This document shows positions 1 to 838 of a stretch of DNA of 6,493 nt, piece after piece. The position numbers and the translations under genes were made by a program. The notes under the pieces were generated by a model. It was not told the DNA's origin. It saw nothing but the letters and a program-made list of their open reading frames with translations, and made no database searches. The DNA is from Burkholderiaceae bacterium (lineage in GTDB: Bacteria; Pseudomonadota; Gammaproteobacteria; Burkholderiales; Burkholderiaceae). The DNA is taken from the NCBI GenBank assembly GCA_025458735.1, contig JALORV010000045.1, positions 1-6,493 of the forward strand. The letters are read 5' to 3'. The stretch's first letter is position 1; the number at the start of each line of letters is the position of its first letter.

Positions 1-461
1 TCCTTGCGGAACGGGTGCCCGACGAAGCCATAGTCGGTCAGGATGCGGCGCAGGTCCGGATGGCCCTCGAACACGATGCCGTAGAGGTCGAACGCCTCCC
101 GTTCGTACCAGTTGGCGCTGGTCCACACGCCGGTGACCGAAGCGATCAGCGGCAGGTCGTCATCACCGCACAGGCTGCGCACGCGCAGCCGGCAGTTGTG
201 CCGCAGCGACAGCAGGTGCATCACGACGGCATAGCGCGGCCCGCTCCAGGCACCGTCGCCATAGGCCGAGTAGTCGAGGCCGGCGAGATCGATCAGCTGT
301 TCAAAGGCGAGCCGAGGATCGGTGCGCAGCCGCGTCGCCACGGCCAGATGGTCTGCACCACGCACGACGATCGTCACCTCGCCGAGCGCGACGACCACGT
401 CCTGCAGCTTGTCGCCGAGCGTCTCGCGGAGGACGCCGGCCAGTTCCTCGGCTCGGCTCAT
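1..461 (-). CDS. nuoC: NADH-quinone oxidoreductase subunit C (complex I 30 kDa subunit), 3' end beyond window
   Basis: NuoC is a peripheral-arm subunit of respiratory complex I. It helps hold NuoB and NuoD against the membrane arm and carries no cofactor. The frame starts at ATG 461-459 and is open to the window edge, giving 153 codons (family length about 200). The diagnostic 30-kDa signature is at residues 118-143: NWYEREAFDLYGIVFEGHPD, followed by LRRILTDYGF and GHPFRK at the edge. Residues 52-63 (AFEQLIDLAGLD) are also typical. The start overlaps the nuoB stop as ATGA (461-458). I see no clear Shine-Dalgarno sequence inside the end of nuoB, so translation is probably coupled. It is a separate NuoC rather than a NuoCD fusion as far as visible, since the fusion point would lie outside the window. 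Identification is secure. Confidence 0.96.
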   Translation of the reverse strand, partial: MSRAEELAGVLRETLGDKLQDVVVALGEVTIVVRGADHLAVATRLRTDPRLAFEQLIDLAGLDYSAYGDGAWSGPRYAVVMHLLSLRHNCRLRVRSLCGDDDLPLIASVTGVWTSANWYEREAFDLYGIVFEGHPDLRRILTDYGFVGHPFRK

Positions 462-838
462 CGGGCGATCGTGTTGGTGCGGCGAATCTTGTTCTGCAGC
501 TGGATGATCCCGTAGATCAGCGCTTCCGCGGTGCACGAGCCCATGCTGATGACCCAGCGCGGCTCGGCCATCTGGTCGTAGACCTTGCGCAGGGCCGGCG
601 CCATCTTGTTGCACAGTGTTCCGGCGACGATCATCACGTCGCTCTGGCGCGGGCTGGGGCGGAAGAAAATGCCGAAACGGTCGAGGTCGTAGCGGGCCGC
701 GCCGGCGTGCATCATCTCCACGGCGCAGCAGGCGAGGCCGAAGGTCATCGGCCACAGCGAGCCGGTCTTCGACCAGTTGACCAGCTTGTCGACACTGGTC
801 GTGACGAAGCCTTCGTTGAGGACGCCTTCGATCGCCAT
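458..838 (-). CDS. nuoB: NADH-quinone oxidoreductase subunit B, with an internal in-frame deletion of about 32 residues
   Basis: NuoB (PSST/20 kDa subunit) binds iron-sulfur cluster N2, which passes electrons to quinone at the NuoB/NuoD interface. The start is ATG 838-836, with GGAGGA five bases upstream (849-844). Residues 1-102 match the family without gaps: GSLWPMTFGLACCAVEMMHA gives the tandem ligands Cys37-Cys38, then RPSPRQSDVMIVAGTLCNKM, and EPRWVISMGSC supplies ligand Cys102. The next residues are TAEALIYGIIQLQNKIRR and the normal C-terminus. In ordinary NuoB about 32 residues lie between MGSC and TAEA: the ANGGGYYHYSYSVVRG-type segment and the PGCPP motif with the fourth N2 ligand. 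Here codon 102 (TGC, 535-533) is followed directly by ACC (532-530). The length is 126 residues against about 158, and the frame is kept. Family and identity are certain. Function is doubtful because N2 should not assemble. It may be a real deletion or a sequence or assembly error. Confidence 0.95.
   Translation of the reverse strand: MAIEGVLNEGFVTTSVDKLVNWSKTGSLWPMTFGLACCAVEMMHAGAARYDLDRFGIFFRPSPRQSDVMIVAGTLCNKMAPALRKVYDQMAEPRWVISMGSCTAEALIYGIIQLQNKIRRTNTIAR

What the first reader, a model, noticed from the sequence alone, without database searches (positions are those of the whole stretch)
458..838. NuoB lacks about 32 residues, including the fourth ligand of iron-sulfur cluster N2
The sequence shows MGSC (residues 99-102) followed directly by TAEALIYG. 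From family knowledge, NuoB of this type is about 158 residues. It has the glycine/tyrosine-rich ANGGG...YSVVRG segment and the PGCPP motif at this point. The missing length (158 minus 126 = 32 residues, 96 bases) fits exactly, and the frame and both flanks are perfect. Three N2 ligands remain (Cys37, Cys38, Cys102); the fourth, equivalent to E. coli Cys158, is gone. N2 is the final electron donor to quinone, so a complex with this subunit should be inactive. The explanations are a real in-frame deletion (degenerating complex I, or another NuoB copy elsewhere), a minority variant in a mixed sample, or an assembly or editing error. nuoA and nuoC look under normal constraint, which makes a recent event or an artefact more likely than old decay.
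Basis: partly seen in the sequence, partly recalled or inferred. Interest (0 to 1): 0.85.

Follow-up and report, generated by a model that had tools for sequence, protein, structure and literature searches.

The report
Respiratory gene nuoB missing 96 bases
In this stretch of bacterial DNA a highly conserved respiratory-enzyme gene lacks 96 bases that encode part of its iron-sulfur cluster site; the relatives examined keep them, so this is most likely a sequence-record artefact or a one-off broken copy, not a new kind of enzyme.

Summary
Window 838-458 (-) encodes a 126-aa NuoB. Residues 1-102 run straight into the last 24 at window 533/532; 32 residues with the fourth N2 cysteine are absent. 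In 57 of 57 fetched loci with a nuoB hit, 32 residues follow the same point. All 120 listed homologues have extra residues there, 109 exactly 32. No shared junction was found: none among those 120; a junction pattern hit 3 of 369 class-level genomes, none NuoB, while the matching intact pattern hit 301 of 369. The rest of the protein keeps 87 of 87 positions conserved at 90% or more, and nuoA, nuoC and tpi show no comparable gap. Relatives share only 0-1 nt at the breakpoints and the segment folds no more strongly than the rest of the gene, so no hotspot explains it. The change is recent or not biological. Best explanation: a sequence-record artefact. Main rival: a genuine recent null allele in one strain. 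Neither the genome nor reads were available, so these cannot be separated here. Interest is low.

The parts
458..838 (-). nuoB, 126 aa, lacking 32 residues between residues 102 and 103
   Evidence: ORF; NCBIfam NuoB; gap measured
532..533 (-). deletion junction (residues 102/103, on a codon boundary)
   Evidence: 0-1 nt microhomology judged from 57 relatives
3..461 (-). nuoC, first 153 residues, open to the window edge; its start overlaps the nuoB stop
885..1250 (-). nuoA, 121 aa, no comparable gap

Best explanation
The window most likely comes from an uncultured relative of the Burkholderiales with an ordinary nuoABC arrangement. The 96 bases are most likely not missing from the organism: the sequence record skips them through a local assembly, library or record error. 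Shown: the gap, its exact size, its absence from the relatives examined, and conservation of the remainder. Inferred: that it is an artefact and not a real allele, and the taxonomic placing (from gene order and similarity).
For: No homologue with the same junction was seen. In one search a protein with it would have aligned without a gap and should have ranked first; only the best 120 of 7999 scored are listed, and all 120 carry extra residues here (116 with more than 20, the other four with 12-20). In one search, 291 of 300 order-level genomes match, and the rows printed (best matches only) end at query residue 104 inside an open frame of at least 159 aa. The junction pattern, which covers every spelling of G-S/T-C-T-A-E-A, hit 3 of 369 class-level genomes, none in a NuoB reading frame; the backwards control pattern hit 9 of 369 (my count of the rows); the same-style pattern for the intact form hit 301 of 369. 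In 57 of 57 loci the 32 residues are there. The window keeps 87 of 87 columns conserved at 90% or more among 27 homologues. No direct repeat at the breakpoints (0 nt in 43 and 1 nt in 14 of 57 loci) and no excess DNA folding of the segment. Six of the 120 listed homologues are single-member entries (five from one contig each; no contig count given for P0014) with different in-frame gaps of 10-20 residues in this segment (P0010, P0014, P0030, P0033, P0044, P0045): one-off gaps do occur in such records, though a query that lacks the segment favours them. Local assembly errors and their damage to protein genes in draft metagenome genomes are described in PMC7111523 (passages).
Against: By general knowledge a k-mer assembler needs shared sequence to jump, and the breakpoints share 0-1 nt in relatives, so a simple repeat collapse is unlikely. 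The join is in frame and on a codon boundary, which chance would give in about one case in nine (my estimate). No reads, coverage or second assembly of this genome could be examined. P0010, one of the closest homologues over shared residues (115 of 126), also has a gap here, though with other end points.
Confidence: 0.6

Rival explanations
1. A real, recent in-frame deletion in one strain. NuoB cannot hold cluster N2, so complex I is inactive or not assembled, and the cell uses another NADH dehydrogenase or a second nuoB.
For: Clean join without a repeat, as in non-homologous deletions. At least one order-level genome has two strong nuoB matches (G184). An N2-less mutant complex in Yarrowia assembles but has no quinone reductase activity (PMC8042128, passages).
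Against: No sign of relaxed constraint in the rest of nuoB (87 of 87 columns) and no comparable gap in nuoA or nuoC. No relative examined shares it. A very recent event would leave no such sign, so this is weak evidence.
Confidence: 0.32
2. Population mixture: the deletion is a minority variant or a chimeric library molecule that the assembler chose over the intact form.
For: Explains a blunt join without repeats; one-off gaps of different sizes occur in this segment in other records.
Against: An assembler normally prefers the deeper path (general knowledge); no depth data were available.
Confidence: 0.06
3. A working, shortened NuoB in which N2 is held by another ligand or is absent, fixed in this lineage.
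For: Open frame, intact flanks.
Against: 0 of 57 loci and 0 of 120 listed homologues share it; the two closest listed homologues over the shared residues (P0039, 112 of 118; P0002, 116 of 126) have the full segment. In Yarrowia electron transfer to quinone fails without N2 (PMC8042128, passages).
Confidence: 0.02

Closest known systems
NuoB / PSST / NDUFS7 / Nqo6 (complex I 20 kDa subunit; NF005012, TIGR01957)
   Same: Residues 1-102 and 103-126 align with the family on both sides of the gap; three of the four N2 cysteines; nuoA-nuoB-nuoC order as in Burkholderiales loci.
   Different: Lacks 32 residues including the fourth N2 cysteine.
Protein-database NuoB entries P0010, P0014, P0030, P0033, P0044, P0045
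   Same: Single-member entries with an in-frame gap in the same segment.
   Different: Gaps of 10-20 residues with other end points; all six keep the last cysteine motif.

Membership tests
NuoB (complex I subunit B) | Sequence match above the curated family cut-off | tested here: met
   NF005012 181.8 bits against 116; TIGR01957 169 against 142.7
NuoB (complex I subunit B) | Tandem cysteine pair and MGSC cysteine | tested here: met
   Cys37, Cys38, Cys102
NuoB (complex I subunit B) | Fourth N2 cysteine 30 residues after the third | tested here: not met
   absent; segment missing
NuoB (complex I subunit B) | nuoA-nuoB-nuoC gene order | tested here: met
NuoB (complex I subunit B) | Working N2 cluster and quinone reductase activity | not testable with these tools
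   inference only
Slippage deletion between direct repeats | Direct repeat at the breakpoints | tested here: not met
   0 nt in 43 and 1 nt in 14 of 57 relatives; judged from relatives, since the missing DNA of this strain is unknown
Local assembly error | Junction not supported by reads | not testable with these tools
   no reads and no own genome available

The most novel reading that the evidence does not exclude
A lineage keeps and uses a NuoB without the fourth N2 cysteine, so that N2 is held by three cysteines plus a foreign ligand, or electrons reach quinone without N2.
Probability: 0.02. Interest if true: 0.85.

Novelty: not a real feature. Interest (0 to 1): 0.12.

Why it matters
If it were a working form, it would contradict the view that N2 is essential for quinone reduction by complex I. 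As it stands, it mainly warns that a single sequence record can show a clean, in-frame loss of a highly conserved active-site segment, which would mislead anyone inferring loss of function from one contig.

Tried and rejected
Structure prediction of the 126-aa protein (mean pLDDT 44.0) and of a full-segment comparator, P0039 (40.7): both too poor, the control included, so nothing was concluded and no fold search was made. P0039 has a frameshifted tail, which made it a poor control.

DNA hairpin as a deletion hotspot: mean folding energies of 120-nt pieces across the gene in 57 relatives run from -17.6 to -23.0; those that start at or just before the segment are -20.2 and -20.5. Rejected.

Slippage between direct repeats: rejected.

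The first count of the gap in loci and a list by another motif (53 loci, all with PGCPP) were checked again without presupposing the intact form (57 of 57). In one search the anchors for the 120 listed homologues were found in 110: 100 with 32 extra residues, two with 33, one each with 31 and 47, six with 12-22; ten had no anchor and rest alone.

A first count of conserved columns on ungapped sequences (39 of 94 and 12 of 20 columns at 95% or more, no departures) was replaced by the aligned count.

Junction pattern: three hits, all read, none NuoB. It does not catch NuoB with other residues at the join or a gap with other end points. Intact-form control: 301 of 369.

No row for the window's own proteins (shown with '-' as source) is among those listed, so the protein database gave no second record of this contig that I could recognise.

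Literature: searches for NuoB with N2 and cysteine (8 papers), NuoB with in-frame deletion and complex I (3 papers), NuoB with Cys158 (none) and assembly-error terms (10 of 27 listed). No title or abstract start shown describes such a natural NuoB; the papers were not read through. From PMC8042128, PMC7111523 and PMC8357420 only passages were seen; nothing is taken from the last.

Full report
What is there. The minus strand of the window reads, from the right, the end of a protein with an S1-like domain (probably pnp, by recall), an S9-type oligopeptidase, a quinone-oxidoreductase-like gene, tpi, secG, a tRNA-Leu(gag), nuoA, nuoB and the start of nuoC. The names of nuoA, nuoB and nuoC come and that of tpi also from the source names; the others are recalled from the ORF translations and gene order. 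The same order of genes, without the S9 gene, is found in loci such as L010, L032 and L066 (Noviherbaspirillum, Herbaspirillum, Burkholderia). The nearest listed TPI is 99% identical over 99% of the query (P0121, a JGI contig of 1665 bases), so close kin have been sampled in metagenomes, but no whole genome of this organism is held.

The gap. NuoB is 126 aa. With residues 1-102 alone as query, 57 of 103 fetched loci give a hit, and in 57 of 57 the reading frame goes on for exactly 32 residues before the TAE/SAE motif that follows at once in the window. Many of these loci were fetched with the window's own TPI or NuoB, so they are a sample of relatives, not of all bacteria. Among the 120 homologues listed out of 7999 scored, 109 align with exactly 32 extra residues. 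Of the other 11, six have fewer because of gaps of their own (P0010, P0014, P0030, P0033, P0044, P0045), P0020 has 47, and the rest differ slightly or are aligned differently. PGCPP is present in 118 of 120, and the two others (P0108, P0117) keep its cysteine.

What is lost. A study of Yarrowia complex I names four NDUFS7 cysteines as N2 ligands, C85, C86, C150 and C180, and reports that mutants without a functional N2 assemble but cannot reduce quinone (PMC8042128, passages). The third and fourth ligand are 30 residues apart, as in the relatives here. The window keeps the first three and lacks the fourth. From this, a complex built with this subunit should be inactive; this is inference.

Is it shared? 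Not in what I could search. A protein with the same junction would have matched the query without a gap and should have headed; none did. In 300 order-level genomes, drawn from a larger group, 291 had a match; the rows printed (best matches only) end at query residue 104 within an open frame of 159 aa or more. A degenerate DNA pattern for the junction matched 3 of 369 class-level genomes, none in a NuoB frame, against 9 of 369 for the backwards control and 301 of 369 for the intact-form pattern.

Old decay or recent? The rest of the protein keeps 87 of 87 columns that are at least 90% conserved among 27 homologues (these homologues were chosen from the best hits, six of them the gapped entries). 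In the 94 codons before the junction the 12 closest loci printed differ by 6-7 amino-acid changes against 21-60 silent changes, as under normal constraint. nuoA, nuoC and tpi align with relatives without a comparable gap (six best rows each). So the change is very recent or not in the organism.

Why here? The breakpoints share 0 nt in 43 and 1 nt in 14 of 57 relatives, and the segment does not fold more strongly than the rest of the gene. There is thus no slippage or hairpin signature. That argues against a simple repeat collapse by an assembler as well as against a mutational hotspot; it leaves a chimeric molecule, a scaffolding or consensus error, a change to the record, or a non-homologous deletion. 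The six gapped single-member entries show that one-off gaps occur in this segment in other records; the ranking favours them because the query lacks the segment, so they say nothing about how often.

Verdict. I rate artefact at about 0.6, a real recent null allele at about 0.32, a mixed population or chimeric molecule at about 0.06, and a working N2-variant NuoB at about 0.02. Only reads, PCR or a second assembly can decide. 'Not a real feature' is my best judgement, not a demonstration. Local assembly errors are described as a fault of uncurated metagenome genomes that propagates incorrect protein-coding genes (PMC7111523, passages).

Noticed in passing
window 4073-6157 (-): An S9-type oligopeptidase gene lies between the S1-domain (probably pnp) gene and the quinone-oxidoreductase-like gene; none of 103 fetched loci has a match in its stretch (E <= 1e-20), while 6 of 9 related genomes have a nearly full-length match of 48-54% identity at a place that I did not read.
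   Followed up: partly
P0039 (protein entry, contig of 33019 bases): The closest listed homologue over shared residues has the full segment but a tail that departs from the family after QLQN, which looks like a frameshift or another one-off sequence error in a nuoB record.
   Followed up: no
P0010, P0014, P0030, P0033, P0044, P0045: Single-member NuoB entries with different in-frame gaps of 10-20 residues in the same segment.
   Followed up: partly
P0020 and P0004 (protein entries): NuoB entries with extra residues: 47 in place of 32 after residue 102 in P0020; a repeat-like internal stretch in P0004.
   Followed up: no
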